NCBI GenBank assembly: GCA_035048485.1
Contig: CM068587.1
Coordinates: 25,500,534 to 25,564,533 of the forward strand
Direction of reading: 5' to 3'
Source: Pteria penguin
Taxonomy: Eukaryota; Mollusca; Bivalvia; Pterioida; Pteriidae
DNA: 64,000 nucleotides
In this document: piece by piece, positions 4,742-44,400 of the stretch
Position numbering within the stretch: the stretch's first letter is position 1
Layout of the letters: each line of letters opens with the position of its first letter
Position numbers and translations under genes: made by a program
Notes under the pieces: model-generated
Database searches by the model: none
What the model saw: only the letters and a program-made list of their open reading frames with translations
What the model was told of the DNA's origin: nothing

Positions 4742-5915
4742 ATGAAGATCACAACAATCAGTTTTGTTGTTTTAAGTATTTACGTCGCTCTCCAAAAAGG
4801 TAAGGTCATTAATTTTTCTTGAGTTAGTTTGAAATCGATTTCAATAGATAAGTCAGAAAAGTTTAATATTTTGAATATTTTAGCAATTGTTCATTATCTG
4901 CCGTGAAAACGAAAGGCTATGGACAATGCTGTGATAAAACCATTTGGCGTATTTTATTTTCAAAGGAGTTATCTGTCAAACGACACAGCAACGACCGCAA
5001 TGGCTTCAAGACATGTGGTTAGAATGGCAGCTACGACAACAGAACCATAACCTAAATGCAGATGGCATTCCTATTGATGCCGACGGCAATCCACTTCCTA
5101 TAGATCCTGGAACTCCTGGAATTCCATCCGATTTTGAAACTCTCGGTGTCGTTAATCCTAATCAGATAAGAACTGTTTCTGACTCGGAAATCGAAGCTTC
5201 TTTATCCGGTAGTGGAATCACCGAGGCACCTACTACTACACCGGAAGCTCCCTCTGCGCATGGGCATGAACACCATGGTGCTCATGGGCATGAGCATCAC
5301 GGTTCGGCTGCTAATTGTGATGGTAGAGGAGGTGTTATAAAAGACAACACAGGCAAAATCACTCACCTTATTGATATACACGATTGTAGTTTGCTCCCTG
5401 TTATTCACAGTGAACTGACCGGGGGTCACGTGTTTGACCCGCATACAAACGAATACATATTTGCCTTAGAAGCAACAAGTTTTCTTGAAAATGAAAACGC
5501 AGGAACTGGTGACAAATCTTTAACTCCTGGGTCACAAATAACAACTGGGGTAGTGAATCCATCTCACATACAAGAGGTGCCGTCTAATCCTGTCAGTCCA
5601 GGAAACACAATACCTGTTCCTGGAAATGCCAATCCGATCGTTCACGGAAATATTCCAAAACCAAAAACAACGACAACCACTACTACCACCACAACAACAA
5701 AGAAACCTACTACTACTACAACAACTACCAACAAGCCGACAACAACGACGACGACGACAACAACAACAACAACAACAACCCCGAAACCGACCACCACAAC
5801 TAAGAAGCCAAAAGTAGTCCAAAAACCACCGTGCACACTTTCAGCCAAATTAAAACGTAAATTAATCATTTTGAGAAGAAGGGGTTATAACCCACCGTGG
5901 GGCGCGAATTGTTAA
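4742..5915 (+). CDS. Family gene A: secreted His/Thr-rich protein with C-x22-C and C-x25-C motifs (335 aa, two exons)
   Basis: I do not recognise this family. Exon 1 (4742-4799) encodes a 19-residue hydrophobic signal peptide starting MKITTIS and ends at AAAAAG|GTAAGG. The 166-bp intron ends TTTTCAAAG|GA, and exon 2 runs 4966-5915; the junction is phase 1. The start was chosen because it gives the signal peptide and joins in frame. The mature protein has an acidic, Pro/Asp-rich N-terminus with an ETLGVVNP motif (again GVVNP further on), a His-rich doublet HGHEHHG at about residues 120-134, and the conserved block at 137-194 (GKITH, HDCSLL, TGGH, DPH). A Thr-run mucin-like stretch with Lys-Pro breaks lies at about 251-307. 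It ends with a basic C-terminal module, C309 to the final C335, with NPPWG. It lacks the RxRFG repeats of its two downstream paralogs. Seen: all motifs. Inferred: secretion, likely O-glycosylation, extracellular matrix role. Confidence 0.85.
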
Positions 5916-5981
5916 CAGCTCATGTTATTAGTCACTGTAATTCTGATTCTTTGTTACCGATAAAATGATTTTAATCCTTGG

Positions 5982-6068
5982 AATAAACACTATTGTATAT
6001 GATAATGTATGTATACAAGATTTAAGTATTGCACTAAAACCTTTTATAGATGTTAAAAACAAAATAAA
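5982..6068 (+). promoter_or_regulatory. Candidate poly(A) signals for gene A
   Basis: Two AATAAA hexamers lie 67 and 148 bp past the stop codon, at 5982 and 6063. Either could direct 3'-end formation. The motif is common in AT-rich DNA, so the call is tentative. Confidence 0.45.
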
Positions 6069-6549
6069 GTTACTGGCAGTGGGTGAGTCGTTGTGGCATT
6101 TACAATAACGGTGGACATCTATGTACCCTTGGGAATAATAGACTCCTAGTAATGATAATAAGTGCTACGAAGAAACGAGTATATCCCGTTTGGTTAGCCG
6201 CACCTGCCATACATACCCAAAATATACAAACGGTAATATGAGAACGAGAAAAGTGATATTTACCCTTGATTGATTGATTATTATATATGGCGTTATACTT
6301 GATAGTTACAGGATTAAAATGTAAATTATAAAACGTTTTTCATTTTGTCACTTATCAACAATACATACACCACTACAGCTTTGTTGCTGCCAAACAATTA
6401 TGAGAATTGTTCAGACATTAGTCCTTGACAGAACTATATTAAAGTTTGATAATATGATGTACCAAGCACTGATCTGCATATTCCAAATCTAACTAGAGAT
6501 CATGTAAACAAGGTACTGGAACTCAGATCATCAGATAATTGAGGTCTTT
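6069..6549. other. Intergenic, nothing recognised
   Basis: Non-coding spacer between genes A and B with no repeat or exon signature that I could support. Confidence 0.4.
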
Positions 6550-6960
6550 CAGTATATGTCCCAAAGGTAAGGCTAATGAACTTTGATTTCTATTGAATCA
6601 AATTATCAAGTGTGTAACAAGCAGGGTCATAAAGTCATGGACAGACTTTGAATCGGACCTAGAACCTTCCGCCTACATGCGGATGCTCTAATACCTGAGC
6701 TATCTGAACTGACATCCTATTCTGCCAGCCATATTCTTTCCTGCCAATTAGACGTTTCATCGAAACCTAAAAAAAGTCTTCTTCTCATAAAGACCTTACA
6801 AACACTAACTGATGAGAGTTTATGGAACCTCAAATTCTTTAACAGACAAGGTTAAAATTTGTGGCCAGACTGGGATTTGAACTTAAAACCTTTCATCTAC
6901 CGTGAGAATACTCTACTACTGAAGTATCTGAGCCAATACCTTAGTCAGTCACAGGTGAAA
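6550..6960 (-). repeat. Two tRNA-derived SINE heads in tandem
   Basis: Read on the minus strand, two tRNA-like bodies follow each other. The one near 6650-6715 has an A-box-like TAGCTCAGGTATTAGAGCA and an intact anticodon-type stem (TCCGC/GCGGA). The one near 6868-6945 has AGTAGTAGAGTATTCTC and a B-box AAGTTCAAATCCC. T-arm pairing is poor and acceptor stems do not close, so these are SINE-derived and not functional tRNA genes. Confidence 0.55.
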
Positions 6961-7070
6961 TAAACTTGGAGTGATTTGATCAGTTGGTTGTTTCTAAAAA
7001 TCCAAACTCTAATTTTAATTAGACTGTTTTAGACACTTCCTCTACGTTGATTCTTCCTTTCCTTACCTTG

Positions 7071-7123
7071 ATACATAACGTCGTCAGTTACGCATCGTCA
7101 GTGTTGCATACATTACCGATTGG
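7071..7123 (+). promoter_or_regulatory. Upstream block shared by family genes B and C
   Basis: About 270-320 bp before the gene B start codon lies GATACATAACG, TCGTCAGTTACGC, ATCGTCAG and ATACATTACCGAT in that order. The same ordered words occur before gene C at 19914-19993. Outside this block the two upstream regions are not obviously alike, so it is a candidate conserved promoter element or 5' exon remnant. Confidence 0.5.
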
Positions 7124-7388
7124 ACCCTAGCATGTGCGGACGCGGAGGAATCAGCAGGGGTTCTGAATATTTTACACTCCAACAGCATGGTAAGAACACC
7201 TCTGAAACTTTATCTGGAGTAGACCCACTCTTGATGAAATTTCTTGGATATGCGCTTTTCAAGAAGAACAGATTTTAAATATATTTTGAAATGAAAGATA
7301 TTTTTTTGTATAATGTAACAAAATCGTGTATTTACAACTAGGCAAGTCTGATGGATAATTTCATTTGATTTTCAACATCATAATTGAA

Positions 7389-12203
<4,815 letters not shown>

Positions 12204-12409
12204 CGCAGTAGAAATACAAAGAAAATATGAATTATAGATATTTATCTAATATTTATTGTGTAACAATCTATCATGGATATAAATCTAAGCTTCTTTATAA
12301 TGCACTGATTATATGTATTTTTACTCATTTCATTGTAAAAATGTTGTTTCGGTTTTGTTTGTGCCTGTCGATATTATGGATTCTGAAATGATTTTAGAAA
12401 AGTGTTTGT
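12204..12409. other. 3' flank of gene B
   Basis: AT-rich. No canonical AATAAA was found before the reverse-transcriptase remnant, so the native 3' end may have been displaced or may use a variant signal. Confidence 0.4.
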
Positions 12410-13740
12410 TTGTTTGCCTTTACTCGTGGATGGAGTGTGCAAACATACTGGATTAAAACTCTATATACAACCATTCCTCATATACAACTAAAGAACAGAA
12501 TGACATCAATTATTCAAAACGCCTTCTTTAACAAAAAAGGAATTCGCAGATATAAATATCTCGTTTTAGGCCACAACGACACATATTTTGTAAAGGAACA
12601 GTCTGATTCCAGCAGCAAGTATACAGAAAGAGATTATCCAAATGTTAGAATTTCTTATAGATAATATTTTTGTGATATTTGGTGGGAAAGTGTTCCAACA
12701 GATTGTTGGCATTCCTATGGGTACTAATTGCGCGCCTCTTCTGGCCGACATATTTTTGTACTCTTACGAGGCAGAATCCATACAGTCTCTGCTCTCTAAA
12801 GGCAATAAACAATTAGCATCTCGGTTCAACTTTACATACAGATACATCGATGATGTTTTGTCTATTAACAACCCTGTATTTGAGAATCACCCCAACATCA
12901 TATATCCAAAGGAACTCGAGATAACGGATACTACAGAGAGCACATCTTCTGCTTCATACCTCGATATACTATCAGTTAGATAGTTCATTAGTAAACTCTC
13001 TTTATGACAAACGTGACGATTTCAATTTCATTATTACCAACTTCCCTTTTCTGAGTAGCAACATACCTTCTTCTCCCGCATATGGCGTCTTCATTTCACT
13101 ACATATACGCTTTGCCAGGGCATGCTCTAAATACGAAAATTTCGTCCTGGGAGCGAGGCTTCTTGCCACGAAACTACTCTCACAAGGATATATTGAGGAA
13201 CGTTTGAAATTGTCACTGAGGAAGTTCTATGGTCGTTATAGGGATCTATTGCAATTTCAGATTCCTCTTTCAAGAGAGTTAACCGATATTTTGGGACCTG
13301 ACCATACTAAATAACCATCTTAACTTTTTGACTATATTTCATTTGACAAAATACGTGTATACATGTATATACAGATATTTGTTCACCTGCGTTTCCGACA
13401 CCGGAATTTCAGGCAGGCAGCATTTCTTGCATTGAATTGGAAATTTCACTTCGTGTTCCTGTCTCCTTCGTATGTTCATGCGTGTATATTTATGTATTTA
13501 CCTCCTCGATTTGAAAGGTCATTGCAGGACTTTTGCGACGGTTGTTGCATGCAACCAGGGGACGCTTACTCCTCCCGGGCACATGGTCTCACCTCGATTT
13601 TATTGGGGTTCGCATTTGTCTGAATATGACACTAAACACGATATTGTCCCCTTTATTCCATGGACTATGAGATATGGTTTACCCTTCGGTACTTCTTCGT
13701 TTTTTTACTTCCTTTATATTTTTCTTTACTAATGTACTTT
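12410..13740 (+). pseudogene. Decayed reverse transcriptase of a retrotransposon (Penelope-like or related)
   Basis: Three frame-shifted pieces read in order. First is a fragment with LYTTIPHIQLKNR (about 12450-12640). Second is the RT core at 12642-12983 with GIPMGTNCAPLLADIF and the catalytic YRYIDDV motif. Third is a thumb-like region (about 12985-13312) with SLYDKRDDFNF, ITNFPFLSSNIP and KFYGRYRDL, ending at a TAA. Frameshifts and a stop make it non-functional. A partial sister copy lies at 41760-42225. No endonuclease domain is visible, so the class is uncertain; a Penelope-like origin fits best. The tail to 13740 shares CGGTACTTCTTCG with the sister copy. Confidence 0.75.
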
Positions 13741-14158
13741 CATTTTAATAAATAGTTTACAATAGGTCAAGGTTGATCTTGTGTTTCTCTATTTTCATGC
13801 AAAATTCATCAAAAATTGATGACTCTTCCTTGTCTCAAAACGTAAACTTGTTGATTTCTTTTCAAAGCTTAAACGTTTATTTTCAAAATTTTCACAGTAT
13901 CATAAATATGTGATTATAAATGCCTGTTTCAAATGATCTGTTTGAAAATGGTTATGAGAGAAAAAACTATTATTTGACTCGTAAATTGGCCGACAACGGG
14001 AGGTAAACCAAAGGATTATGACCCTATGAAACGTATCTATTAATTATAAAAATTTTTCTTTTTGCTTTTAAAATGCTTTAATGCTGTTATATACAGATTT
14101 GAAAGTGAAACAATGGACAAATATTGCGACTTTTTTTGTGTGCATCAGTTTCACCTTT
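13741..14158. other. Intergenic, nothing recognised
   Basis: AT-rich spacer between the RT remnant and the 349-bp array. Confidence 0.4.
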
Positions 14159-15504
14159 AATAAATATGGAACATATATACCTTTTAATTTAGTGCACCAT
14201 ATGCGCATTTCGACAACTTATGTCTCTTCAGTGATGCTCGTGGCCAAATGTTTAGAATTCCCAAAATATATAAATATTTGAAGAGCAGTGTTGAAACCAA
14301 AATGACCAAAAAGTGAACCAAAGAATCTATCTAAGGACAGAGCTATGCATGAGGGAGATACTCCTAAGTTTTAGAGTGATTTACTTAATTTCACGACTGA
14401 AAATTTGAAATATATATTTCATGTCAGTACAAAAGCACTGAAAACTAGACTTATGATGCCCTCGGGGACTATCAGTCCACCAGCAGTGACGCCGGTCTAT
14501 TGGTTATAATAAATATGGAACATATATACCTTTTAATTTAGTGCACCATATGCGCATTTCGACAACTTATATCTCTTCAGTGATGCTCGTGGCCAAATGT
14601 TTAGAATTCCCAAAATATATAAATATTTGAAGAGCAGTGTTGAAACCAAAATGACCAAAAAGTGAACCAAAGAATCTATCTAAGGACAGAGCTATGCATG
14701 AGGGAGATACTCCTTAGTTTTAGAGTGATTTACTTAATTTCATGACTGAAAATTTGAAGTATATATTTCATGTCAGTACAAAAGCACTGAAAACTAGACT
14801 TATGATGCCCTCGGGTACTATCAGTCCACCAGCAGTGACACCGGTCTATTGGTTATAATAAATATGGAACATATATACCTTTTAATTTAGTGCACCATAT
14901 GCGCATTTCGACAACTTATGTCTCTTCAGTGATGCTCGGGGCCAAATGTTTAGAATTCCCAAAATATATAAATATTTGAAGAGCAGTGTTGAAATCAAAA
15001 TGACCAAAAAGTGAATCAAAGAATTTATCTAAGGACAGAGCTATGCATGAGGGAGATACTCCTAAGTTTTAGAGTGATTTACTTAATTTCATGACTGAAA
15101 ATTTGAAGTATATATTTCATGTCAGTACAAAAGCACTGAAAACTAGACTTGTGATGCCCTCGGGTACTATCAGTCCACCAGCAGTGACACCGGTCTATTG
15201 GTTATAATAAATATGGAACATATATACCTTTTAATTTAGTGCACCATATGCGCATTTCGACAACTTATGTCTCTTCAGTGATGCTCTTGGCCAAATGTTT
15301 AGAATTCTCAAAATATATAAATATTTGAAGAGCAGTGTTGAAACCAAAATGACAAAAAAGTGAACCAAAGAATCTATCTAAGGACAGAGCTATGCATGAG
15401 GGAGATACTCCTTAGTTTTAGAGTGATTTACTTAATTTCATGACTGAAAATTTGAAGTATATATTTCATGTCAGTACAAAAGCACTGAAAACTAGACTTA
15501 TGAT
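14159..15504. repeat. 349-bp tandem array, about 3.9 copies
   Basis: The landmark TAAATATGGAACATATATAC starts at 14161, 14510, 14859 and 15208, a constant 349-bp period. Units are nearly identical, and the last is cut short after ACTAGACTTATGATT. Each unit holds GCACCATATGCGCATTTCG, GATGCTCGTGGCCAAATG and a TCAGTCCACCAGCAGTGAC end. No coding frame spans it. Confidence 0.92.
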
Positions 15505-15849
15505 TAACCTTGAAGTCTGTCCTGTATACTAGTAAAAAACCGCAGTCAAGTGATAATCACTATATATGTATTTAGTTTTAAGTCGATTTTTTTTTATTGA
15601 CAATAGGTTAACGGACAGTGTGTGCAGTCATTAGTTTTACACCTAAATAACATAAGATGAAGTTTACAGTTGAAATATTTGTCTACGAGAAATTTTGAAC
15701 TGATATATTATTCTGAATTTTGTGCTCATTGCTAAATCAAGAACTAAGTACATGAATATTATGGAAAACTTGAATTGCCAGACAGACGGACTTATTAGTA
15801 TCTTGACGACTGAAGAGGATATAAAATGTTCTGATAAACTTGTAATCAA
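15505..15849. other. Spacer between arrays
   Basis: Non-coding, AT-rich; nothing recognised. Confidence 0.4.
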
Positions 15850-16870
15850 ATAGGTGTCTTGTGTGTAAATCCGCATCAGCAATGCGGAATACCAATCTGA
15901 TTAAAACCATATCTTTATTCCGCTTCTCTGTTTGTAAGGGGTCATATTCTGGTGAACTCTGATGACGTTTCAGTCACCGAACCCCCTATTTCCCATAGCC
16001 AATCAATGGCTCGGATAAGCACGTGATAGTGACGCAATATGTAAAAAACACTGTTCAAAAACTACCTTGTAGGTCACGCACGCTGTGGATGTTAATTTCA
16101 TTCCTAGGAATCTGCCAGATTTTTATCCGCAATGGCACAAATAAGAAAACGGAATAAAGATATGGTTTTAATCAGATTGTGCGGAATACTAGTCCGAAAT
16201 AAAACCATCGGAAGCAGAAGTAGGACTTCGATCAGCACTTACGAAAAACTGGTCCGGGATATCGGATCCAAACATTGACACGAACAGGTGTTTTGTGTAT
16301 AAAGCAACCATCAGCTATGCGAAACGCTAGTCAGAGATAGATATAGCATATCAAACACAGGACATCGGGAAACAGTGATCATAAACTAGTCCATTATATC
16401 AGATCCAAACATAGGAATTCAGTCAGCAGTGCAGATAAATCAGTCAGAGATATCAGATCCAAACGGACGATTTAAGTCAGCAGAGTGCAACTAGTTAGGG
16501 ATACCAGTTCTAAAATAGGACGTAAGCAAGCAGTGGCCTGGATATCAGATCCAAATGCAGGACTACTGTCAGTATTCCTGAACAACTTGTTCGAGAAATC
16601 AGACCCAAACACAGAACTTCGGTCAGCAGTGCTGATGAATAATTCCTGGATATCAGATCCAAACGCAGGAATTTAGTTAACAGCGCCGATTAACTAGTAT
16701 AGGATATCAGGCCCACATTTTGGTCAGCAGTACGGACAGAGACATAGATATTTTCAGTATCTATGTCTCTGGTATAGATTATATGACTTGCTATACTATT
16801 GGTCAGCAGTACTGATTAACTAGCTGTGATGTCAGATTCAAACGTAGAATTGGGATTATACTTCTTACGG
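15850..16870. repeat. Degenerate 54-bp tandem array
   Basis: The word ATCAGATCCAAAC and its variants recur with anchors at 16401, 16455, 16505, 16547, 16601, 16655 and 16709, mostly 54 bp apart. Between them lie CAGTCAGCAGTGC and ACTAGTCAG. The array is interrupted by the MITE at 15893-16179. Confidence 0.75.
15893..16179. mobile_element. MITE (287 bp) with long terminal inverted repeats and a 10-bp target duplication
   Basis: It begins CAATCTGATTAAAACCATAT and ends with the reverse complement of that. The TIR extends about 36 bp into CTTTATTCCGCTTCTC. TGCGGAATAC flanks both ends, so the insertion split one unit of the 54-bp array. A 9-10-bp duplication is typical of Mutator-like elements (family knowledge). 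Related copies are at 30221-30314 and 44160-44218. Confidence 0.85.
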
Positions 16871-17707
16871 AGGACTTTGAACTGAAGATCACTGAAAAAC
16901 AATTCAGACTCAGACTTATAATATTGTCAGTAGAACCGTATCCAGTGCATTTCTGATCTGATCAAACATAAAGGGATTGCATCGGAAACCCAATGGATCT
17001 AGCTCAAAGCCCAGGTGGGGTCCAACGGCAAGCCTTTGAAAACCGAGTACTGTGTTATATAAATGAATGGCGTATAGCAGTTTTAGAAACTAAATATCTA
17101 AATCGTTTACATTGTATGTCAGATAGTATTATATGCACACTGAATAAGGTTACGTGTAAAAGTATATTCTGTATAATTCCGAGGGGGGGGGGGGGGGGGC
17201 TGGAAAATTTGGTCGAGTCAGATTATTTATTTTCAGATCTGTGAAAGATAGAATATTTATTTCCTTTATATCATGGGACAAATTATTTATTTTCTTGACT
17301 TTTTTGTCCCCAATAAATACTTGTTAGAATTGCACTGTAATACATGTATATGTCATGTATAATTATATTTTGTTTGAAAAACAATGTTCTAATATAAGGT
17401 AAACTCAACAAATAATATGCAAACAGTACTTTAATTGCATAAGTCTATATACTACTAGTTTCTATAGTGAAGTGTATAGTCTTTCTCAGTCTCTGGTATT
17501 CAGATGGAGAATTTCCAGTTATCACTTTAGAAGGATGTGTGAGGAAGTGTTGCTGTTTTGGTGTCTTATCCGAATGATAATATTTATTCATTTTTGACTG
17601 ACTTTGGACTATGTTATTTTAATGCAAAAAAAGCATTTCATAAATATAGTTGATATATTGATATTTCACATTTTAAACTTTGTCTTCGCTACTTCTAGAT
17701 TAAACGA
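16871..17707. other. Intergenic with poly-G tract
   Basis: No gene. A run of about 17 G lies near 17183-17199, interrupting an otherwise AT-rich stretch. The ORF across it is a chance frame. Confidence 0.5.
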
Positions 17708-18980
17708 CTAGGGTCAGTAAGGGCTTAATTTCGCCCCACTTTGAAAACAAAGTTTTTGTTGTAATTCTGATAGAAAATATTGAATTTAGGTATTTGAGGG
17801 AGTTTTCATGCTTTATTTCTCATATTTTATAAATTTGAGGGCAAAACTTTGAATTTGGAAGAAAAATCACAATTTTTTTTTTGGAATCAAATTAAGGTAA
17901 CACCTTGTCTGAGGCATAGTTTCTATATACTCTGTGGATTAACTTCATAGTTGGTAGAACTGGTCATTATGGGAAGATGGTGTGCCATGACCTGGAGTCA
18001 AGATTATACCTCCAAGGTCAAGGTCACAATATATTAGATGGGTAGAACTAGTCTGGGCCTTAACTTTTTACAGCCTTCATCGATTTGAATGATATCTCAC
18101 AGAATCGTTGCCCATGTCTTAATGTTGTGACATGACCTTTGCGAAGGTCATACCTCCAAGGTCAAGGTCACAGTGCATTTGGCTGATTAAGATATGTACA
18201 TTTAGATGTTTGTTGCGTTTGAAATAATGTATGATCGACGTATTATGCTATGTTGGTGTTGTTATTGTTAATGGAAAATAAATAATAAGCAGATTGGCAA
18301 TGGGATTTTGGCAATGATTATTTAATCTTCAAAGGAAATAACGAGATCAACGCCAAGTGCGGCATCTCCTCATACGGCAGCAAAATTCATGTTACTACAT
18401 ATTCCTTGACCTTTGACCTGTTGACTTCCAAGTAAATAGGGATGTTCCTTAAGCCATATGTGAAGTATGAGCCCTATAGGGCCAAAAACTATGACTTCTA
18501 GAGTGTCTGCATGGTTTTTCTACGGTGACCTCTAGTGACCTTATCCTTTTACTTTTTAACCCCGAAATCAACAGGGATCTTTCTCTCGTTATATTTAAGT
18601 CATATGCGAAGTATCACCCAATGGGACCAAAACTGTGACGTCTAGAGTTTCTACGAGGTTTTGTTTCAGACACATACACTCATGCATGACGGTATCATTA
18701 CAATAATCCCTCTTGCAACGCTGTTACGAGGGATAAAAAACCCTTTAGTCTATGGTCTTGTATATGTGATTGGCTGATTTGCAGTAAGGAGAGAGGGACT
18801 ACTATTTCAATGTATCAGGAGCTCTGATTGATTGAAATTATTTGTGATCAATCTATAAATAAAGACTGATTGTGCGGTAAAATCACAAAGTTTAACATCA
18901 TTTTGCTAATATAAAAATTCTATGACGTAAAACAAAGTTCTTTAATTTCGAGGCCGTCACACTATTGTTACTGACCCTAG
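17708..18980. mobile_element. Non-autonomous DNA transposon with CTAGGGTCAGTAA termini (1273 bp)
   Basis: CTAGGGTCAGTAA at 17708-17720 is mirrored by TTACTGACCCTAG at 18968-18980. Reading the terminal TA as the target site gives a GGGTCAGTAA TIR flanked by TA, as for Tc1/mariner-type insertions. Inside, TACCTCCAAGGTCAAGGTCA occurs twice about 138 bp apart. There is no transposase. Confidence 0.65.
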
Positions 18981-19912
18981 CCTTCTGAAAAAACTTAGTA
19001 GGTATTAAGCAAAGATGTTCCTCATGCACAATTTTCCATACTTTAAAAGTTTTAAAGAAACTAAAGACTTCTACAATCTACAATCATTGTTCAAAATTAT
19101 TGCCATGTTTTCTATGCCTAAGGTGAACAATATAGGCCCATTTGGGATCCTTTTTACTTTTGTAATCATGTATATTGATTTAAGTGAAGATACACATTTT
19201 TGTTGAATTTATAATTACTTTTGTTCTTATTTTAAAGTTACGTTTGTGTTTATTTTACATAATACATTTGAATAAATGTGTAAAAATCCTTTGACGAATG
19301 TCCTGTTACACTGATTTAAATGAAACTTAAAGGGAATGAAACAATGTCAACAAATATGGCCACCATAAATTTTGAAATGCACATGATTTAATTTAAACAT
19401 CAACTTTGCATATGTGCTCAGGTGAGTCTGGCATATAAATGAGGGGCGGACAACACAAGTGGAAGTTGGGGAAAGGGATTGGAAATTTGCCGCAAGGGGA
19501 CGGGAATGACACTATTCTGAACAAGAACCTGAAGAGAAAATCTTTCAGAAAGTAGATGGTAGAGCCCTTGTCCCCTGTCTGCCCTTTACAATGGACATGT
19601 AAATATATTTTTAAAAAGCAAGAATTCTATAAAGTTTTGCTGAACACATTGAATAGTTAGATTTGTCGAGTGCTATAAATTCCGGAAACTTTTTTTCCAG
19701 TGCGTATAGAGTGATTAACCCGAAATTAAATTGTCTCATTTCACGGCATCTGTGCGGACAGTTGGGTCATCATTACCTCATTAGAAAGTATGTCCGGTCA
19801 CGATTATGGACAATGATGTTACACGTCACAAAACACAACATTCCTATGTTTATTGCACAACATAATAACAAAAACATGATAACGGTTCAGTTTTAGTAGA
19901 GCAGGAAATGAT
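18981..19912. other. Upstream region of gene C, nothing recognised
   Basis: No exon or repeat signature was seen before the promoter block. Confidence 0.4.
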
Positions 19913-19913
19913 G

Positions 19914-19993
19914 GATACATGACGTCAGTTACGCGCCGTTAGTCGTATCGTCTGTCGCGTTAATCGTCAGCCAATACATTGTCCGATATATAC
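19914..19993 (+). promoter_or_regulatory. Putative gene C promoter block with CRE-like TGACGTCA, CCAAT and TATA-like words
   Basis: About 135-215 bp before the gene C ATG: GATACAT, TGACGTCA (a full CRE-type palindrome), AGTTACGC, ATCGTCAG, CCAAT, ATACATTGTCCGAT and GATATATA. The GATACAT...AGTTACGC...ATCGTCAG...CCGAT order is shared with the block before gene B. Function is inferred from conservation between paralogs only. Confidence 0.5.
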
Positions 19994-20126
19994 CTAAGGT
20001 GAAGACGTCAAAATGGATGAGATTGTTTTGTCGAACGTTGTACATGACATACATTAAACAGATCGGTTAAATAAAGTGCAATTTTTCATCACTGATTGTG
20101 CAAAGAGGCATTTGTTGTGCAGGGAA

Positions 20127-23100
20127 ATGAATCAATTTTCTCCAAGTGATTTGTTATTTTTTCTATCGATACTGTTGATAAACCAAGCAGGTAAGTTTAA
20201 CTGTTTTATATATACATGTGCATATATACAGTATGTATATAGTTACAAAGCACTATGTTAATAATACATATTTTCAATGGATTTCAGAAGAACTCTTTCC
20301 TGGTTTGCTAATACAATGTCCTTGAAATCCTATAAACTTTTTGTCTCAAAAAAGTAATACATACGTAAGAAAATAGTACATGTATGAATAACTGTGCGTC
20401 TCCAATTGAAATTCTCTTTCTTAATAGTCGAGTTGACTATGTTGTATACAATGCATTTTTTTTTTTCTTTCTCCGCTTTTGTTTTTTGTTTTTTGTTTTT
20501 TTTTTTGTTTTTTTATAATTTCTATTTCTTATTTGACTTTAAAAACTATGAAGAACAATAAATGCTTTTAATATAAACAATTTTGCATATTCTAAATGAA
20601 TCTGTTTTCGAAACATATGCTATATAATAGTGGAAGTCGTCTGTACAATAAAACAAATTCTATCAGAAAAAGATTTCACTTTTATACTATTATTTGATAC
20701 TCACGGAATCGGGTATTCAGGTCATATAGTTTTCGACTAGTTCATCTGTCTCTGGCAGAATTGTTAACAAAAACTTTGTCATTGGTCAAAACTTGTAAAA
20801 AGCAAGAAATTCGGATTTGATATTTCACACGTACTGTGTATATTCCTTATAACAATACCTTTTAATTGATACCAAAATTTTCACCTTTGACTTCTGACTT
20901 ACTTTTCAAAAATCGGACATTCCCTGTCATCTGGGGGCATTAGTGTTTCAATATTTCTCGTGTGTTGAGGTTTTCGGGTGTCTGGTTTTGTTTTTGTGTT
21001 TTTCTCATTCATTAGTTTTATATATTTATTATACTTTTGCTTCATTACGAATCTTCGAATATATTCGTTGTGAGTAAAGAAATTGTTTTACGTTACACCA
21101 AGATAACTTCACGTATGTTGGTGGCAACCGCTTGGCACATAGCTTCATAATTTTGACTGGGGGGGGGGGGGGTGTTGCACATTACAACATAAACCTATTT
21201 CATGACTCGGGGTCTCCGTTTATTTTGTGATATCGAAGGTCAAATAGGGAGGTAGAAAATGGTAAATTATTTCCAAAATAGGATTCGAACCCGGATCTTT
21301 AGATTAGAATTCTAGTATAGTATAGCTTGTTAGCTCACCTGAGCCAAAGGCTCAAGTGAGCTATTGTCATCACTCTTCGTCCGTCGTCCGTCGTTTGTCG
21401 TCCGTCCGTAAACTTTTCACATTTTCAACTTCTTCTTCAGAACCGCTTAAAGGATTTTCATGAAACTTGGTATGAATAAAGTACTAGGGGTCCTCTACAA
21501 GTTTGTTTATTTCGTATAAATCCCTCAACAGGTGGCGCCACCATTGCTAAAAATAGATCTCAGAGGGTACCCCTATTTGAAAATCTTCTTCTCCAGAACC
21601 AGTGTATGGACTATAAAACTAATGGCATCTGAGTGATCTAGAAGGATGTATGTCTCAAGTTTCTTTATATCGTTGAAATCCGATAAATAATTTTTGACGT
21701 TTTTTTGACGTTTATTTGGACTTTGTAATTTTAATGCAAAAGAGAGGTATTTTTTTCTTTTAGTAAACATTGATGCATTAATTTGGTTTAATTTGATCAT
21801 TTTTTTTTTGGTAAGAAATACTACTGTGAAGAAATAATTCAATATTTCATGTTTTGGATTTTTTATGAATTTTTAAGACTTTCAAGAAAAAAGGGGGGGG
21901 ACAATTGGTGTAAACATGTCACATTTTGAACTTTTTCTTCAGAACCGCAGAAAGGAATTTGATGAAACTTGGTATGCATCAAGTACTCAAGGTCCCCTAC
22001 AAATCTGGTCAGGATCCGTCCACAGGTGGCGCCACCACAGGCAAAATAGATCAAAGAGGGTACCCTCCTTTGACAAACTTCTTCTTCAGACTGGGGGCAT
22101 ACAGCGACAAACCGAATGCATAGGTTTGATCTAGGGGGATGTTATAAGAAGTGTTGTTAGTTTTGGTTCCGTTCAGAAATCAAATTTTAACGTTTTTTTG
22201 ACGGTTTTTTTTTTACTTTGTAATTTTAATACAGAAATGAGTTCTTTTTTTCTTTTAGTAAATATTGATGCAATAATTTGGTTTAATTTGATCATTTTGA
22301 TGGTAAGAAATACTACTGCGAAGAGATTTTTTCAATATTTCATCTTTTGAATTTTTTATGAATTTTTTTAAAACTGTTTTTATTCTAGTCTGAAATAAAA
22401 TTTGACATATTTTCAACATTTATGTTGACTTAGTCACAGTAATGCAAAAATAAATGAATTCTTCCTTCATGCATGACTGATCATCTAGGTACTCAGGTGA
22501 GCGATATAGGCCAACTTGGGCCTCTTGTATTTCTTTTCCTTTTTACTTGCTTTTTATTTGAAATTAGAATTTTTTGATATTTTGAAATTGAAATTCACAT
22601 TTGCCCACTAAACTGGTAAATAAATAAACAAGTAAATAAATAAATAAATATATGCCTTAAATTATAGATAAATTAGTAACAGAAAAGAAAAAGATCATGA
22701 GCCATCGTACTTTAAGTAAATATATTGTAACTCTTTTTATGAGATTCTAGTGATGCGTGGTCATTTAATAATTGTTTAAGAATGAAATAAATATTTAACC
22801 TGAAACAGGTAAACAGGACACAGAAAATAAATTTTCTTTCCGGGAAAGTTTTGTACATTAATAATCCAATCTTCTTGAAGACGTAGCGTCCTTCTCCTTG
22901 GAAAGAGGGTTGTTCGCTATAATGTGACGATTTTGAATGTCAACATAACATTCAGTACTTATATAATTGCTATATTAGTTATTGTTAATTGCCGTGGTAA
23001 CGTGCGCTTCAATATTAATTCTAGGTAATTTTTTATTATTTACTTAATTTAATTTTGACATATAACTTTACAGTAAAAGATTTATATACATGTAATAAAT

Positions 23101-26100
23101 ATTCATTTTTTCGCCTGAAAATATTGAACGTTTCCATTTCAGTTGTTTTGAGTCAACACTTTAGGCCATGGCCTCCAGCCAATGATTGGTGGAATTCTGG
23201 TCCATGGCATTCGAGATTCCCTCCCGGAAGAAGAGGTGGGACTAGCGACAATATAAATGTACAGATTTTAGACATTAATCGCGAGCCCAATGTGAGAATT
23301 GGCAATAGGGCAGATTTATGGAGACCTACGGTTGATTCACATTTTCCTACTTCAGGAGTAGCTAGACCACCGAGTGTCCAGGCGGTATCTGATACTGGTG
23401 TGTCAATGTCTCAGACCGCAGTCGAGAATTCAGATAATCCCGTCAAATCTGGTTTAAAGAATAAAAACTCCAGTTCCACGGGTACTCCAAAGTCACACGT
23501 GAGTGATACGTCTCCTACAGCCGTTCCTAATCATTCCGATAGCAATGATCCTTTAGGAAACAGTGATTCTCAAGCTAGACGTGTAGAGCAAATCTCAAAC
23601 GATATGTCTATTTCCCGAAATAGATTTGGCGGTAGGGTTCTCAACCGCCCATCAACATTTTCAAGAACGCGTTTTGGCCCAGTTCCACTTTCTGCTGATA
23701 ATGGCCGTACCAAGTCCGAGCAAGTAGGTAGTTCAAGAGACACTGCATTATTAAATACCGAGAGGGAACGATTTGGTACGGAATTCGTAAATAGAAAAAC
23801 TCCTTCTGGAACCAACGCATCGGATAACGCCTTTAATGCACGTAATCGTTTTGGACCACGACAAAATTCTAATTCACGAGATCGATTCGGCACAAGACGG
23901 AATTCAAATCGTGCTTCCCAAATCTCAAGCACACTGGGTAATAAAGATACAGAGAACAGTTCGGGATCAAGCGGCACTATTGTTCCATCTACCTTTAACG
24001 GTCGTGATCGTTTCGGACCTAGACCTAATTTACGTGATCGTTTTGGTCCTAGACCAGTTTTCCGTGATCGTTTCGGTCCTAGGCCTGACTCAAGAGATCG
24101 TTTTGGTCCAAGACCACATTTACGTGATCGTTTTGGTCCACGACCGATTTCCACTATAAGTTCACAATCCACTAGTAAAGTTAATAGTACAGGCAAAAAC
24201 AATAATTTCGGACGAAGTGACTCCAATGGTGTTCCATCTACCACAGTTTCTCGTGACCGTTTCGGCCCAAGACCGGATATTCGTGATCGTTTCGGCCCAA
24301 GGCCAGATTCAAATTCTAGCCACAAAGTCGATAGTAGAAACAAACAGAACAATTTGGGATCACGTGACACGAGCGATGTTCAGTCTACTATTGATTCGCA
24401 AGATCGTTTCACTCCTAAACATAATTTAAATACTGGATCTCAATTAACTGATAAAGTGGATACACAAATAGACACTCGGACTACACCTCTGTTGGTTACA
24501 TTGCATCAAGAGGGTCCAAACTCTTCTCATGAGCATCATATTCATCTCAATAATGAACCATGTGATGGAAAAGGGGGCGAAGTGAGGGACGTAACTGGAA
24601 AGATTACCCATTTGATTGACCAACATGACTGCTCATTGCTGGAGGTTGTCGATAGTGACGTGACAGGGGGGCACGCAATAGATCCACACAATCACGAATT
24701 GCTTTTGGCTCTTGATTCTAAAAGTTTCGTAAACCCGAACACCGATCACTCACAGGTAGTGCCGAATTCCGGATCGTCAGTGTCCGACCCATTTATACCA
24801 GATCCTCATACCAGGAATCATGTAGATCCGCTTGATATACATACCGTGAACGAAGGTATAGGCCAAGCCATTCCAGTTTCAGGACCAGTTATACCAATTC
24901 CAGTTTCAGGACCAGTTATACCTGATCCACATGCCATAAATCCTGTAGATCCACTCGATGTACGTACTGTGAACGAAGGTATAGGCCAAGCCATTCCAGT
25001 TTCAGGACCAATTATACCAGTTCCAGTTTCAGGACCAGTTATACCTGATCCACATGCCACAAATCCTGTAGATCCATTCGATGTACGTACTGTGAACGAA
25101 GGTATAGGCCAAGCCATTCCCGTTTCAGGACCAGTTATACCAGTTCCAGTTTCAGGACCAGTTATACCTGATCCACATACCATACATCCCGTAGATCCAC
25201 TCGATGTACGTACTGTGAACGAAGGTATAGGCCAAGCCATTCCAGTTTCAGGACCAGTTATACCAATTCCAGTTTCAGGACAAGTTATACCTGATCCAAA
25301 TACCATAAATCCTATAGATCCACTCGATGTACGTACTGTGAACGAAGGTATAGGCCAAGCCATTCCAGTTTCAGGACCAATTATACCAATTCCAGTTTCA
25401 GGACCAGTTATACCTGATCCAAATACCATAAATCCTATAGATCCACTCGATGTACGTACTGTAAACGAAGGTATGGGCCAAGTCATTCCAGTTTCAGGAC
25501 CAATTATACCAATTCCAGTTTCAGGACCAGTTATACCTGATCATCATACTGGAGATCCTACAGATCCACTAGGTGATGCATTCCCAGTCGTAGGACCTGG
25601 TCTACAAAGCAGACTGCCAACTTCTGATCAGACTAATATTGCATTGTTAGAAGCTGAAAACAAACGATTAGAACGGCGTCTTGCAAAAGCAGAGAGACGT
25701 AGACTTCGGAAGGAAAAGCGAAAGCGAGAGATGGAGAAAATGAAGCTGAGAATTCGTGAGTTAGAGCAAGCAGCGGGTATAGCTCCATCTACAAGTAACT
25801 TTACGGATATATTGAACACTGATATATCTCGTTCTAAGACATCCAATGATGCTCCTATTAAGAAAAAAGTAATGAGAAAATTGAAAGGAAAAAAGCAAAG
25901 TAAAAAAGCTAAAAGAAAACATCAAACAGTACCCTCTACTAAAACTATTACAACAACAACAGCAGCAACAACAACAACAACAACACCAAATCCAATGAAA
26001 GCACCCAAAAAACAAAATAAACTGTCAGATATTTTGCGGCCTTTATCACAACTTTTAGGACAATCATTGAATGTACAAGGTTTAGAAAATCCACAAAATA

Positions 26101-26285
26101 TTTTGGGTTCTCTGTTAGGGAATAATGCACCACAAAATATTCTGAATTCATTGTTAGGGGTCAATAGGCCAAGTCGCTTTCCTGTACCAAGGAGAAGTAT
26201 GTGTAGACTTAGTCCATGGCAGTTACATGAATTGAGAAGACAACGTGCCATGGGATATGACCCTTTTTGGGGACGTGGCTGTTGA
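20127..26285 (+). CDS. Family gene C: 1068-aa secreted repetitive protein with RDRFGPRP repeats, 41-aa repeats and C-x22-C / C-x25-C motifs
   Basis: Largest, intact member of the family; family unrecognised. Exon 1 (20127-20190) encodes a 21-residue signal peptide starting MNQFSPSD and ends AAGCAG|GTAAGT. The 2952-bp intron ends CCATTTCAG|TT at 23142, joining in phase 1. Exon 2 runs 23143-26285. The mature protein has a Trp/Pro-rich N-terminus, then about 12 RxRFG motifs (residues ~177-411), seven of them RDRFGPRP. Next come a short His cluster, the conserved block 495-552 (GKITH, HDCSLL, TGGH, DPHNHE), and six 41-residue repeats (590-835) rich in IPVSGP. A heptad-like charged coiled coil follows at ~854-902 (ENKRLERRLAKAERRR), then a Lys-rich basic stretch, a Thr run and Leu/Asn repeats (NILGSLLG). 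It closes with C1042 to C1068 and DPFWG. Repeats, basic patches and terminal cysteines suggest a cross-linked extracellular structural protein (inference). Confidence 0.87.
21330..22527 (-). repeat. Copy 1 of a dispersed repeat (GTGGCGCCAC family), in gene C intron
   Basis: It starts TAGCTCACCTGAGCC and ends AGGTGAGCGATATAGGCC...CCTCTTG. Copies in the opposite orientation lie at 52545-54027 and 61935-63634. Internally a monomer with GAAACTTGGTATG and AGGTGGCGCCACCA is present twice (anchors near 21532 and 22024). It encodes no protein. Confidence 0.8.
24001..24312 (+). repeat. RDRFGPRP-coding tandem repeat within gene C
   Basis: Seven near-identical units CGTGATCGTTTCGGTCC with short linkers (PN, PV, PD, PH and so on). 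An unrelated segment of about 30 codons splits them 5+2. The high nucleotide identity between units suggests recent expansion. Confidence 0.9.
24846..25583 (+). repeat. Six 123-bp (41-aa) tandem repeats within gene C
   Basis: Each unit begins GTGAACGAAGGTATAGGCCA (last unit: GTAAACGAAGGTATGGGCCA) and encodes VNEGIGQAIPVSGP, a second IPVSGPVIPDP and NPVDPLDVRT. Units differ by few substitutions, and the sixth diverges at its end. They are preserved in frame, so the expansion was tolerated by selection on the protein. Confidence 0.95.
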
Positions 26286-34379: not shown

Positions 34380-35353
34380 CGGGTACAGAACTTTGTACTG
34401 GTTGGCATTACCAACATACAGCAGATACAATGGTATATGTTTATACTTGTTGGTACCAGCAACATATAGCAGATACAGTGGTATATCCTTATACTTGTTG
34501 GTACCAGCAACATACAGCAGATGCAATGGTATATCTTTATACTTGTTGGTACCAGCAACATACAACATATACAATGGTATGTCTTTATACTTGTTGGTAC
34601 CAGCAACATACAGCAGATGCAATGGTATATCTTTATACTTGTTGGTACCAGCAACATACAACAGATACAATGGTATGTCTTTATACTTGTTGGTACCAGC
34701 AACATACAGCAGATAAAATGGTATATCTTTATACTTGTTGGTACCAGGAACGTACAGCAGATACAATGGTATATCTTTATACTTGTTGGTACCAGCAACA
34801 TACAACAGAAACATGGTATGTATTTATACTTGTTGGTACCAGCAACATACAACAGATACAATGGTATATCTTTATACTTGTTTGTACCAACAACATACAA
34901 CAGAAACATGGTATGTATTTATACTTGTTGGTACCAGCAACATACAACAGATACAATGGTATATCGTTATACTTGTTGGTACCAGCAACATACAACAGAA
35001 ACAATGGTATGTATTTATACTTGTTGGTACCAGCAACGTACAGCAGATAAAATGGTATATCTTTATACTTGTTGGTACCACTAACATACAGCAGATACAA
35101 TGGTATATCTGTATACTTGTTGGTACCAGCAACATACAGCAGATACAATGGTATATCTTTATACTTGTTGGTACCACTAACATACAGCAGATACAATGGT
35201 ATATCTTTATACTTGTTGGTACCACTAACATACAGCAGATACAATGGTATATCTTTATACTTGTTGGTAGCAACATATAGCAGAAACAAGGGTATATCTT
35301 TTAACTTGCTGGTACCACCAGCATACATCCGATACAATGGTAGATCTTCCTAA
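34380..35353. repeat. 48-bp minisatellite, about 20 copies
   Basis: The unit is TTGGTACCAGCAACATACAG + CAGATACAATGGTATATC + TTTATACTTG. Because 48 is divisible by three and the unit lacks stops in several frames, long ORFs appear on both strands. Some units lose one base (AGAAACATGG), shifting those frames. Confidence 0.95.
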
Positions 35354-35469
35354 TTGTGGGTACCGCAAAGATACATCTGTTGGTAACTGTTGGTGTCACG
35401 AACATAAATAACATTTATCTGATAGATTAAAACATTTCTTTTCCCGCTGACACGACCAACCTAAAAATA

Positions 35470-36900
35470 TACATCTACCAACATACAGTAGAGCTTCCTG
35501 CTTGTTAGTTCTATCGACATACAGCAGAGCTTCCTACTTGTTAGTTCTACCAACATACAGCAGAGCTTCCTACTTGATAGTTCTACCACCACACAACAGA
35601 GCTTCCTACTTGTTAGTGCTACCAACATAAAACAGAGCTTCCCATCTGTTAGTGCTACCAACAGATTCCTGCTTGCTGACTCTACCAACATACAGCAGAT
35701 TCTCCTATTTCTTGATTCTCAAACATACAACAGAGCTTCCTATTTGTTGGTTCTACTAAAAAACAGCAGGGCTTCCTACTTGTTGGTTTTACCAACATAC
35801 AGCAGAGTTTTCTTCTAGTTGGTGCTACCAACAAACAGTAGAGCTTTCTACTTGTTGGTTTTACCAACATACAGCATAGCTTCCTGTTTGTTAGTTCTAC
35901 CAACATACAGCAGAGCTTCCTGCTTCCTGACTCTACCAACATACAGCAGAGCTTCCTACTTGCTGGTTTTACCAACATACAGCAGAGCTTCCTATTTGTT
36001 GGTTCTACCAACATACAGCAGAGCCTCCTATTTGTTAGTACTACCAACATACAGCAGAGTTTCCTTCTTGTTAATTCTACCAACATACAGGAGATCTTCC
36101 TATTTGTTAGTTCTACCAACATACAGCAGAGCTTCCTATTTGTTAGTACTACCAACATACAGCAGAGTTTCCTTCTTGTTAATTCTACCAACATACAGGA
36201 GAGCTTCCTATTTGTTAATTCTACCAACATACAGCAGAGCCTCCTGTTTGTTAGTTCTACCAACATACAGCAGAGCTTCCTATTTGTTAGTACTACCAAC
36301 ATACAGCAGAGTTTCCTTCTTGTTAATTCTACCAACATACAGGAGAGCTTCCTATTTGTTAATTCTACCAACATACAGCAGAGCCTCCTGTTTGTTAGTT
36401 CTACCAACATACTGGAGAGCTTCCTACTTGTTGGTTATACAGCAGAGCTTCCTACTTGTTGGTTATACCAACATACAGCATAGCTTCCTACTTGTTGGTT
36501 TTACCAACATACAGCGAAGCCTCCTATTTCTTGGTTCTAAAACATACAGCAGAGCCTCCTATTTGTTAGTACTACCAACATACAGCAGAGCTTCCTTCTT
36601 GTTATTTCTACCAACATACAGGAGATTTTCCTACTTGTTAGTTCTACCAACATACAGCAGAGCTTCCTATTTGTTAATTCTACCAACATACAGGAGAGCT
36701 TCCTATTTGTTAGTTCTACCAACATACAGGAGAGCTTCCTATTTGTTAGTTCTACCAACATACAGCAGAGCTTCCTACTTGTTAATTTTACCAATATACA
36801 ACAGAGCTTCCTATTTGTTGGTTATACCAACATACAGCAGAGCTTCTTGCTTGCTGGTGCTACCAACATACAGCAAATCTTCCTACTACATGCAGCAGAT
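35470..36900. repeat. 36-bp minisatellite, about 38 copies
   Basis: The unit is CTACCAACATACAGCAGAGC + TTCCTATTTGTTAGTT. It shares CAACATACAGCAGA and the CTTGTTGGT edge with the adjoining 48-bp array, so both derive from one ancestor. Higher-order blocks recur (for example the GTTTCCTTCTTGTTAATT variants near 36060, 36170 and 36310). The 370-codon open frame is a repeat translation. Confidence 0.95.
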
Positions 36901-41466: not shown

Positions 41467-44400
41467 CTAACGCCTGGTCACGGTTACGGTGGTAGTTGTC
41501 GTCCTTGTCTGAACAGCGCCACCACCACCACGGACAATGATGATGCGGGAGCGGCGCTCGGGTATTAGGAGCAACCCTACGATGATGGCTAGGATTCCCG
41601 CTATTATACACAGCGCGAAGGCCCAGGAAAGGTAGTTATTAGTAACACCTGCAACCCAGATGATGATGCCAAGGAAGATACATCCAGCTACAAATACAAG
41701 AGATTAATATTAATGGTGATAGTGGTGATACATCGATGACATTTTATCGATTAACAACACTGTATTTAAGGATCACCTCAACATCATATATCCAAAGGAA
41801 CTCGAGATAAAAGATACAACAAAGAGCGGATCTTCTGCTTCATACCTCGATATAGTCGTATCAATTAGTGACGATGGTTCATTAGTAACCTTTCTCTATG
41901 ACAAACGTGACGATTTCAGTTTCATTATTACCAACTTCCCTTTTCTCAGTAGCAATATACCTTTCTCTCTCGCATATGGCGTCTTCATTTCACTACTTAT
42001 ACGCTATGCCAGGGCATGCTCTAAATACGAAAATTTCGTCCTGAGAGCGAGGCTTCTTGCCACGAAACTACTCTCACAAGAATATATTGAGGAACGTTTG
42101 AAATTGTCACTGTGGAAGTTCTATGGTCGATATAGGGATCTAGTGCAATTTCAGATTCCTCTTTCAAGAATGTTAACCGATATTTTGGGACCTGACCATA
42201 CAAAATAACCATTGGTACTTCTTCGTTTTTTACTTGGTATTATGCTAAACCATTCAACCAGGCACCGTAACATACATACACATGAGATCAGGTATCATGA
42301 TGCACGTACCACATTAGCTTTGGTACCATATTAGCTTTAGTATTATGCAAAAATTACTGGACGAGACACCATAACGTACGTACCACATTAGCTTTGATAT
42401 TATGCTAAACCATTCAGACCAGATTTCGTCGCATACGTACCACATTAACTTTGGTATTACGCTAAACCATTCAGACTAGGCATTTTAACATACGTACCAC
42501 ATTAGCTTTGGTATTATACTAAACCATTCAGACCAGGCATCGTAATATACGTACCACATTTGCTCTGGCATTATGCCAAAACCATCTGGCCAGGCTTCGT
42601 GACGTACGTACCACGCTAGCTTTGGTATTATGTCAAAACCATCGGACCAAACATCGCAGCCTACCTACTACATTAGCTTTGGTATTGTACCAAAACCATC
42701 GGACCGGGCATCGTACCGTACGTAGTACGTACCACGTTCGCTTTAATATTATGCTAAGCCATTCAGATCAGGCATCGTAACATACGTACCACATTAGCTT
42801 TGGTGTTATGCCAAAACCATCGGACCAGGCATCGTAATGTATGTACCACATTAGCTTTAGTACCATATCAGCTTTGATATTATGCGAAAACCATCGGACG
42901 AGACACTGTTACGTACGTACCACATCAGATTTGGTACTATGCCAAAGCCATTGAATCAGGCATAACTCGCTAATATAGATTGTTATTGTTTAACGTTACC
43001 TAAAATTATTTCATTTATATGGTCGTGGCACCTGTGTGGTGCCTAATTTCATAATTCTCTTTTGTCCTCTTCAAAATGCCCACCGAAGCAGCGAGGGATT
43101 TATATAAATACGCGCCATTATAAACCGTAATGCGGGGCCTCAGTTTATACCGTCTCATCCAAAGGACAGATACAAAGGTAGAGGCTGATAATCGAACCGA
43201 CAGCCTGAAAGGACAGATACAAAGGTAGAGGCTGATAATAGAACTGACAGCCTGAAAGGACAGATACAAAGGTAGAGGCTGATAATAGAACCGACAGCCT
43301 GAAAGGAACCTGCGTCGTTAGACTGAAAGTCCATTACGAAGCCATTGGACCAGCTGTCCCGCCTGGTATAGTCAAAGTAGAATATAGTACATGGTCATTG
43401 TGTATATTTTTGATATTTTAGAATCTGCACTACTTTCTGTATAACTAAATTAGCCAAGGGAGAAGTTCGGTGTGATGAAATGCTCCGAGTAGAATGCAAA
43501 TTGCATTTTACCCCTCTGTACACCTCGCTGTGTTATGACCTCACTTGTATAATATTTTCAGTTCCCTATAGGAAGTAAGCAATAAAGATTTGAGTAATAT
43601 TTCATACTTTAATCTTTAAAGTCGGGAAGTGAAAGTCTTATTGTTTCAGTGTTTTCTTACAATGACCCTTTTGATGGTGTGATGTAATAAGCGCTATTAA
43701 ATCATAATGCTCCGCGTTTCGGTACGATAGGATACCTGGTGAAAGTTTATATGCCTTTTCCTTATCTAATATACATATAAATATGTATAGAATATTGAAA
43801 AGTCTTCCACGTAAGATATTTACCTTGGATTGAATGGTGGATCCAGGAACAAGAACTGCACACATACAGATTTATTAGATGATCATTTAATTCTGAAGAG
43901 AGGAAATAGTGGGGGAGGGTGCATTTTAGAAATGAATATTCTGTCCTTTCAGAACATGTAAATACATAGTCTGAAGTCTTCTGGCGAGAAAATAACTATA
44001 TTCAAGCCACCATGTATGGTTAATGTGCAGTCTCAGTCGGATTTTATGACTCGGTTCGCCCGCCATATGTATTAAATACAGAAGTTGGTTACTTGAAAAA
44101 ATTTAAAAATAACATACTGATGCAAGTATTTTAGGTAGCTCTTTGATTACCTAAATGTTCAATCTGATTAAAACCATATCTTTATTCCGCTTCTCTATTT
44201 GTCCCATTGCGGATAATTTGTGAAAAAACCCCACTTTTTCTCAAAAGTTCATTAATCAATATAACATGCAATCTGTTCCAAAGAAAATGAATATAATCTC
44301 TTTTGTCGTATATTATAAATATTACTTATGTATATCTTTTACAAGAAAGAATAAAACTCAGGGTAAGATTACGTTCTAAGACTTTTGCTTCGGCATAAAG

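What the first reader, a model, noticed from the sequence alone, without database searches (positions are those of the whole stretch)
4742..26285. Three-gene tandem cluster of an unrecognised secreted protein family
Genes A, B and C lie head to tail on one strand. All share a separate signal-peptide exon, a phase-1 intron and a single large exon. The large exon carries the same ordered modules: LGVVNP-type motif, His-rich run, C-x22-C block, charged or Thr-rich zone, and terminal C-x25-C. Sizes grow 335, roughly 900-950 and 1068 residues, mainly by repeat gain. I know no named family with this architecture. The low-complexity, basic, repeat-built composition resembles extracellular structural proteins of molluscs (shell matrix, byssus or foot).
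Basis: partly seen in the sequence, partly recalled or inferred. Interest (0 to 1): 0.88.

Follow-up and report, generated by a model that had tools for sequence, protein, structure and literature searches.

The report
Four-gene bivalve secreted protein family
A genome that is very probably a bivalve's carries four related genes for secreted, repeat-rich proteins that share one small, strongly conserved histidine- and aspartate-containing module; they look like building blocks of a secreted material, but their function is untested.

Summary
Three genes lie head to tail (A 4742-5915, B 7389-12203, C 20127-26285). Each has a short signal-peptide-like exon, a phase-1 intron and one large exon. 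Two corrections apply. B's frame is broken once, near 10290, so its 948 residues are two frames added together. The "LGVVNP" motif is weak in C.

The new result is a fourth gene, D, on another large contig (986 aa, same exon plan). D keeps the His-rich run, the ~56-residue block and a cationic tail, and lacks the terminal C-x25-C, so the block is the family's core. Across four copies 27 columns are invariant, 9 of them His/Asp/Glu. In A-C together it shows a 16-residue internal duplication (HxIDxH...). Two protein searches and one DNA-pattern search of the genome find only these four genes. No Pfam model reaches its cut-off; PDB and the protein collection give no relative.

A ten-copy RPGW/KPGW/APGW precursor in the same genome points to a mollusc, very probably a bivalve. 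Best reading: secreted, disordered matrix proteins whose block plus His run act as a cross-link or metal node. RFamide-precursor, DOPA-adhesive and collagenous-byssus readings fail their tests. Expression, metal binding and occurrence in other species are untested. Interest is moderate.

The parts
4742..4799 (+). gene A exon 1 (start codon and signal-peptide-like stretch), phase-1 donor at 4800
4966..5915 (+). gene A exon 2, to stop; protein 335 aa
5241..5315 (+). gene A His-rich run (25 residues before the block, 32% His)
5316..5483 (+). gene A conserved block (C-x22-C, HxIDxH-like pair)
5832..5912 (+). gene A terminal C-x25-C
7389..7449 (+). gene B exon 1 (signal-peptide-like), donor at 7450
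9425..10299 (+). gene B exon 2, first frame, ending in a stop at the frame break
10290..12203 (+). gene B exon 2, second frame (637 aa), to stop
11193..11267 (+). gene B His-rich run before the block (12% His in the 25 residues; a denser His zone lies further upstream)
11268..11435 (+). gene B conserved block
12120..12200 (+). gene B terminal C-x25-C
20127..20190 (+). gene C exon 1 (signal-peptide-like), donor at 20191
23143..26285 (+). gene C exon 2, to stop; protein 1068 aa
23622..24305 (+). gene C zone of 12 R-x-R-F-G motifs, most continuing P-R-P
24486..24560 (+). gene C His-rich run (20% His in the 25 residues before the block)
24561..24728 (+). gene C conserved block
24789..25570 (+). 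gene C 123-base (41-residue) tandem repeat, 6.4 copies
26202..26282 (+). gene C terminal C-x25-C, protein ends on Cys

Best explanation
A-D are a small family of secreted, mostly disordered matrix-forming proteins of a (very probably bivalve) mollusc, likely part of an extracellular secreted material (shell organic matrix, periostracum or another gland secretion). SHOWN: signal-like exon plus phase-1 intron plus one large exon in all four, by splice consensus; four paralogues in the genome; one strongly conserved ~56-residue block preceded by an acidic His-rich run; a net cationic C-terminal part in all four; low-complexity arms that differ between members. INFERRED: secretion; the block's two cysteines are disulfide-bonded, since they are the only cysteines of D; the block folds as a pair of beta-hairpins; its repeated H-x-I-D-x-H motif, together with the His run, binds divalent metal and acts as the cross-link node; the cationic tails, and in A-C the terminal Cys loop, add electrostatic and disulfide links. 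This would be a sticker-and-spacer polymer with variable spacers and one constant sticker.
For: Block: 31 invariant columns in three copies and 27 in four, including four His, four Asp and one Glu. Internal duplication (C: HLIDQHDCSLLEVVDS / HAIDPHNHELLLALDS), offset 21, 16 columns of A-C: observed score 29.1, 0 of 1000 column shuffles reach it, the highest shuffle being 28.9 (singly 0 of 2000 for C, 9 of 2000 for B, 430 of 2000 for A, so A alone does not show it). dN 0.18-0.30 while dS gave no value (NG86) or failed (YN00), as expected at saturation; of identical residues only 14 of 38, 11 of 35 and 15 of 42 keep the same codon, which I read as purifying selection. AF2 model: strands 10-13, 19-23, 30-32, 42-45, 50-53, mean pLDDT 83-87 per ten residues over 11-50, from only 4 sequences, and two of the five models were poor. 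D has only two Cys, both in the block. In A/B/C/D: His 32/12/20/24% just before the block, block net -5/-4/-7/-7, C-terminal part net +14/+30/+8/+63. Mollusc-type APGWamide precursor. Repetitive low-complexity secreted proteins are typical of mantle secretomes (PMC4897951, passages including parts of the abstract). His-rich domains that coordinate Zn are known from byssal preCols (PMC6477608, passages).
Against: There is no expression, proteomic or metal-binding evidence. In C the C-terminal part is only weakly cationic (+8), and the part before the block is cationic in B and C (+14, +25) but acidic in A and D (-9, -49), so the arms follow no single charge plan. The fold model is not confirmed by any structure match. 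B/D and C/D N-termini are not similar (E 13 and 0.8), and A's arms match B only at E 0.9, so different members could serve different roles.
Confidence: 0.5

Rival explanations
1. Rapidly evolving reproductive secretions (egg-coat, jelly or accessory-gland proteins) in which the block is a binding module and the arms are disordered spacers.
For: Tandem paralogues with divergent arms and one constant module; a Thr-rich, O-glycosylation-prone C-terminal part in A (29% Thr).
Against: Pfam shows no domain over its cut-off, so no known egg-coat domain was recognised. No tissue data. Strongly cationic tails and His runs are not a hallmark of such proteins (recalled).
Confidence: 0.2
2. Peptide-hormone precursors: the repeated R-x-R-F-G units of B and C would be cut out as RFamide-like peptides.
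For: 8 RFG motifs in B and 12 in C; signal-like exon.
Against: 0 of 20 RFG motifs are followed by K or R, the amidation-cleavage signature. A and D have no RFG although they keep the block. In contrast, the genome's APGWamide-type precursor shows ten clean PGWGKR units.
Confidence: 0.05
3. Secreted metal-buffering or antimicrobial/immune proteins: His-rich run plus HxIDxH block sequesters metal, cationic tail binds microbes.
For: His-rich run and invariant His/Asp in the block; very basic tail in D, net +63.
Against: Large size, repeats and low-complexity arms fit a structural protein better; Pfam shows no domain over its cut-off.
Confidence: 0.12
4. Byssal or foot adhesive proteins of the DOPA or collagen (preCol) type.
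For: Mollusc-type genome and His-rich runs.
Against: Tyr counts 3, 0, 1, 3 in A-D leave almost nothing to make DOPA from; Gly 5.8-8.1% speaks against a collagen core of any size, and no collagen model matched at E <= 1.
Confidence: 0.08

Closest known systems
Repetitive low-complexity mantle-secretome / shell matrix protein families of molluscs (such as KRMPs, shematrins)
   Same: Signal-like start, low-complexity and repeat-built arms, basic regions, paralogues, no Pfam domain at the curated cut-off (the kind is described in PMC4897951, passages including parts of the abstract).
   Different: Carries a strongly conserved 56-residue His/Asp block that no Pfam model recognised; presence in shell or mantle, and lineage restriction, are untested.
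Mussel byssal preCol histidine-rich domains
   Same: His-rich stretches in a secreted protein, proposed metal cross-links (PMC6477608 passages).
   Different: No collagen core; the paper places the His-rich domains at the N- and C-termini, here the run precedes an internal block; no sequence relation shown.
Histidine-rich extrapallial (EP) protein of mussels
   Same: His-rich secreted mollusc protein found in shell (PMC4517812 passages).
   Different: The paper's EP-like proteins carry a C1q domain and 14.3% His; here no C1q match and 2.8-4.8% His overall.
Lepidopteran heavy-chain fibroin (recalled)
   Same: Short signal exon, one intron, one giant repeat exon, and a C-terminal Cys as last residue in A-C.
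   Different: Analogy only: not compared here; Gly/Ala/Ser composition is not silk-like; D lacks the terminal Cys.
YD/RHS beta-hairpins of teneurins, tandem WW domains
   Same: Small beta-hairpin arrangement in the AF2 model; best weak structural rows.

Membership tests
Repetitive low-complexity secreted proteins of the mollusc mantle (kind, not a sequence family) | N-terminal signal peptide | tested here: met
   Hydrophobic first exon in A-D with consistent phase-1 splice; judged by eye, no SignalP run.
Repetitive low-complexity secreted proteins of the mollusc mantle (kind, not a sequence family) | Repetitive low-complexity arms | tested here: met
Repetitive low-complexity secreted proteins of the mollusc mantle (kind, not a sequence family) | Mollusc genome | tested here: met
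   APGWamide-type precursor with 5 RPGW, 4 KPGW, 1 APGW (compare PMC4200219 section 5). That such precursors are confined to molluscs is recalled, not tested.
Repetitive low-complexity secreted proteins of the mollusc mantle (kind, not a sequence family) | Expression in mantle or presence in the shell proteome | not testable with these tools
   No RNA or proteome data.
RFamide neuropeptide precursor | RFG followed by basic cleavage residues | tested here: not met
   0 of 20.
DOPA-type foot proteins | Tyr-rich sequence | tested here: not met
   Tyr 3, 0, 1, 3 in A-D.
preCol byssal collagens | Gly-X-Y collagen core | tested here: not met
   Gly 8.1, 5.8, 7.6, 5.8% overall in A-D; no collagen Pfam match at E <= 1.
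EP-type histidine-rich shell protein | C1q domain | tested here: not met
   No C1q match at E <= 1.
New_glue (PF21827) | Score over the curated cut-off | tested here: not met
   A's Thr run scores 20.1 bits, cut-off 31, E 5e-4; B, C and D not listed.
Teneurin/RHS YD repeat or WW domain | Fold match of the block | tested here: inconclusive

The most novel reading that the evidence does not exclude
The block is a new extracellular domain: a disulfide-closed double beta-hairpin born by internal duplication of an H-x-I-D-x-H unit, which serves as a metal-dependent cross-link node and has been kept nearly constant while the surrounding arms were rebuilt between the four genes.
Probability: 0.25. 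Interest if true: 0.6.

Novelty: new variant of a known kind. Interest (0 to 1): 0.42.

Why it matters
Mollusc secreted materials are full of fast-evolving low-complexity proteins that are hard to align between species. A small constant module inside such proteins would be a handle for tracing them across species, and a concrete candidate for a sequence-defined cross-linker. It is testable with one recombinant 60-residue domain.

Tried and rejected
Led nowhere: Pfam on whole exons and on the block; the rows listed were New_glue (E 5e-4) and Mucin (0.29) on A's Thr run, Sigma70_r4 (0.059) on B, Calpain_inhib (0.031) and DUF937 (0.32) on C, all under their cut-offs; one member matched a phage tail model at E 0.054. 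PDB sequence: best E 0.14, 0.9, 0.87. Protein collection three times: one search scored 7973 candidates and hit one PF00404 protein, E 9e-4 over 5% of the query; two searches found none, with 302 and 4 candidates. Foldseek twice and VIA once. Ten paper searches (one search was rejected for a bad term) include two for letters of the motifs (0 papers each), one for letters of a bivalve-like repeat (0) and two for the genome's size; none identified the species.

Rejected: RFamide precursor, DOPA adhesive, collagenous byssus (see Membership tests). A hidden intron in B: 428 formal GT-AG pairs, none convincing, not strictly excluded. More family members: the DNA pattern for D-x-H-D-C-S-L-L gave 7 matches, four being A-D; of the other three, two were translated and are full of stops, and the third is the neighbouring unit 46 bases away in the same repeat; the reversed control pattern gave 4. 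A shared N-terminal motif in D (B/D E 13, C/D E 0.8). Promoter similarity: B and C share one 33-base stretch at E 0.002, too little to build on. Two Pfam families that I recalled as mollusc markers, ELH PF02323 and haemocyanin PF14830, did not ring; their controls did not ring either, so this says nothing firm.
Full report
OBSERVATION. Open frames and the splice reading give A (4742-4799, 4966-5915), B (7389-7449, 9425-12203) and C (20127-20190, 23143-26285). All are on the + strand, each with a start-plus-signal-like exon, a GTAAGG or GTAAGT donor, an AG acceptor and a phase-1 junction. Introns are 166, 1975 and 2952 bases. The cysteine spacing C-x22-C and C-x25-C is exact in all three, and the last residue of each protein is Cys. 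The copies are clearly homologous.

FRAME BREAK IN B. The frame that begins at 9403 stops at 10299. The next frame opens at 10290 and runs to 12203. Of 428 GT-AG pairs that could bridge the break in the range scanned, none has a 6/6 donor; the 36 with 5/6 need introns of 794-1385 bases, and the 14 of at most 200 bases have 3/6 or less. A's own real donor scores 5/6, so an intron is unlikely rather than excluded. B may be a null allele, or the assembly may err by a base. The block downstream is still 75% identical to C's.

A FOURTH MEMBER. A whole-genome search with A's block (E <= 0.1) returned four places: A, B, C and a locus on contig C4 (74.1 Mb; the window lies on C8, 56.6 Mb). Search with that locus's block returned the same four at E <= 10. 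A DNA pattern for D-x-H-D-C-S-L-L returned these four plus three non-family matches, control 4. The tool scores only its best candidates, so very divergent members could be missed. Gene D (L026, minus strand, exon 1 8423-8369, exon 2 7834-4929) has the same exon plan and encodes 986 residues. It has only two cysteines, both in the block, and no terminal C-x25-C. No further copy was found by tblastn (E <= 1) within 100 kb on either side of the window. The N-terminus of C matches only B (E <= 1). C's terminal module matches only B, plus one row at E 2.4. So the family is defined by the His run plus block plus cationic C-terminal part. The terminal Cys module and the LGVVNP-like motif belong to subsets.

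COMPOSITION; the 25 residues before the block hold 32/12/20/24% His and 0-4% K+R in A/B/C/D. The block is net -5/-4/-7/-7. The part after it is net +14/+30/+8/+63. The part further upstream has no common sign: -9/+14/+25/-49. Tyr is 3/0/1/3. RFG occurs 0/8/12/0 times and is never followed by K or R (0 of 20). C's extra length includes 6.4 copies of a 41-residue unit at 93% matches.

WHICH ANIMAL. The window's genome is 838 Mb in 49 contigs, unnamed. A pattern for PGWGK[RS] found 16 matches, ten of them within 509 bases of C4 (control pattern 12 matches, places not shown). That stretch encodes a signal-like start and ten units, 5 RPGW, 4 KPGW and 1 APGW, each followed by KR after the Gly. PMC4200219 section 5 (read whole) reports six RPGW, three KPGW and one APGW for the pearl oyster Pinctada fucata, and says that gastropods more often have APGW where bivalves have T, R or K forms; it lists related peptides from a cuttlefish too. 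So the animal is a mollusc, and very probably a bivalve. That it is near the pearl oysters is a guess from the matching count.

HOW IT LIKELY WORKS. Secretion is inferred from the signal-like exon. A constant, probably disulfide-containing, His/Asp-bearing node inside low-complexity arms suggests a sticker-and-spacer matrix protein. His-metal links are documented for byssal preCols (PMC6477608 passages), and low-complexity families of this general kind are common in mantle secretomes (PMC4897951 passages; PMC4517812 passages). The assignment to shell, periostracum, byssus or another secretion is open. The Tyr and Gly figures argue against DOPA adhesive and collagen types.

LIMITS. No RNA, no proteome and no second mollusc genome could be searched. 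The protein collection gave no convincing relative, but whether it holds molluscs was not tested. I claim no more about print than this: the motif-letter searches in open-licence papers found none, and most sequences are in figures or supplements not held. The family may well exist in public databases as 'uncharacterized protein'.

Noticed in passing
L045 (G000:C4:41760293-41760801): APGWamide-type neuropeptide precursor with ten units (5 RPGW, 4 KPGW, 1 APGW), which types the genome as mollusc, very probably bivalve.
   Followed up: yes
window 12594-13314 and 41729-42208: Fragments of a reverse transcriptase (RVT_1 E 0.003 for 12594-12980), broken between frames; the second is similar by eye.
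   Followed up: partly
window 55609-56233, minus strand: Transposase-like fragments (DDE_3 E 6.8e-5 for 55609-55956, under its cut-off).
   Followed up: partly
window 14158-15504: 349-base tandem repeat, 3.9 copies, 97% matches, between genes B and C.
   Followed up: no
window 34391-36887: Two long minisatellite arrays (48-base x 20.5 and 36-base x 39.8) that create large spurious open frames in several frames.
   Followed up: no
window 41467-41703 and 50298-50528, minus strand: Two open stretches that look like exons of a claudin/PMP22-type membrane protein (recalled resemblance; Pfam gave nothing).
   Followed up: partly
L010:9141-9578, L007:6962-7285, L020:4807-5094: Flanking genes for synteny: tRNA_edit domain gene (E 1.6e-24), a protein kinase (E 1.7e-7, just under its cut-off; looks like an MSK-type kinase, recalled) and a SCYL1-like exon (recalled, no Pfam match).
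   Followed up: partly
window 10287-10299: Single frame break in gene B; null allele or assembly error not resolved.
   Followed up: partly
window about 7070-7102 and 19914-19943: A 33-base stretch upstream of exon 1 shared by B and C (78.8% identity, E 0.002), containing TGACGTCA in C; possible shared promoter element.
   Followed up: no
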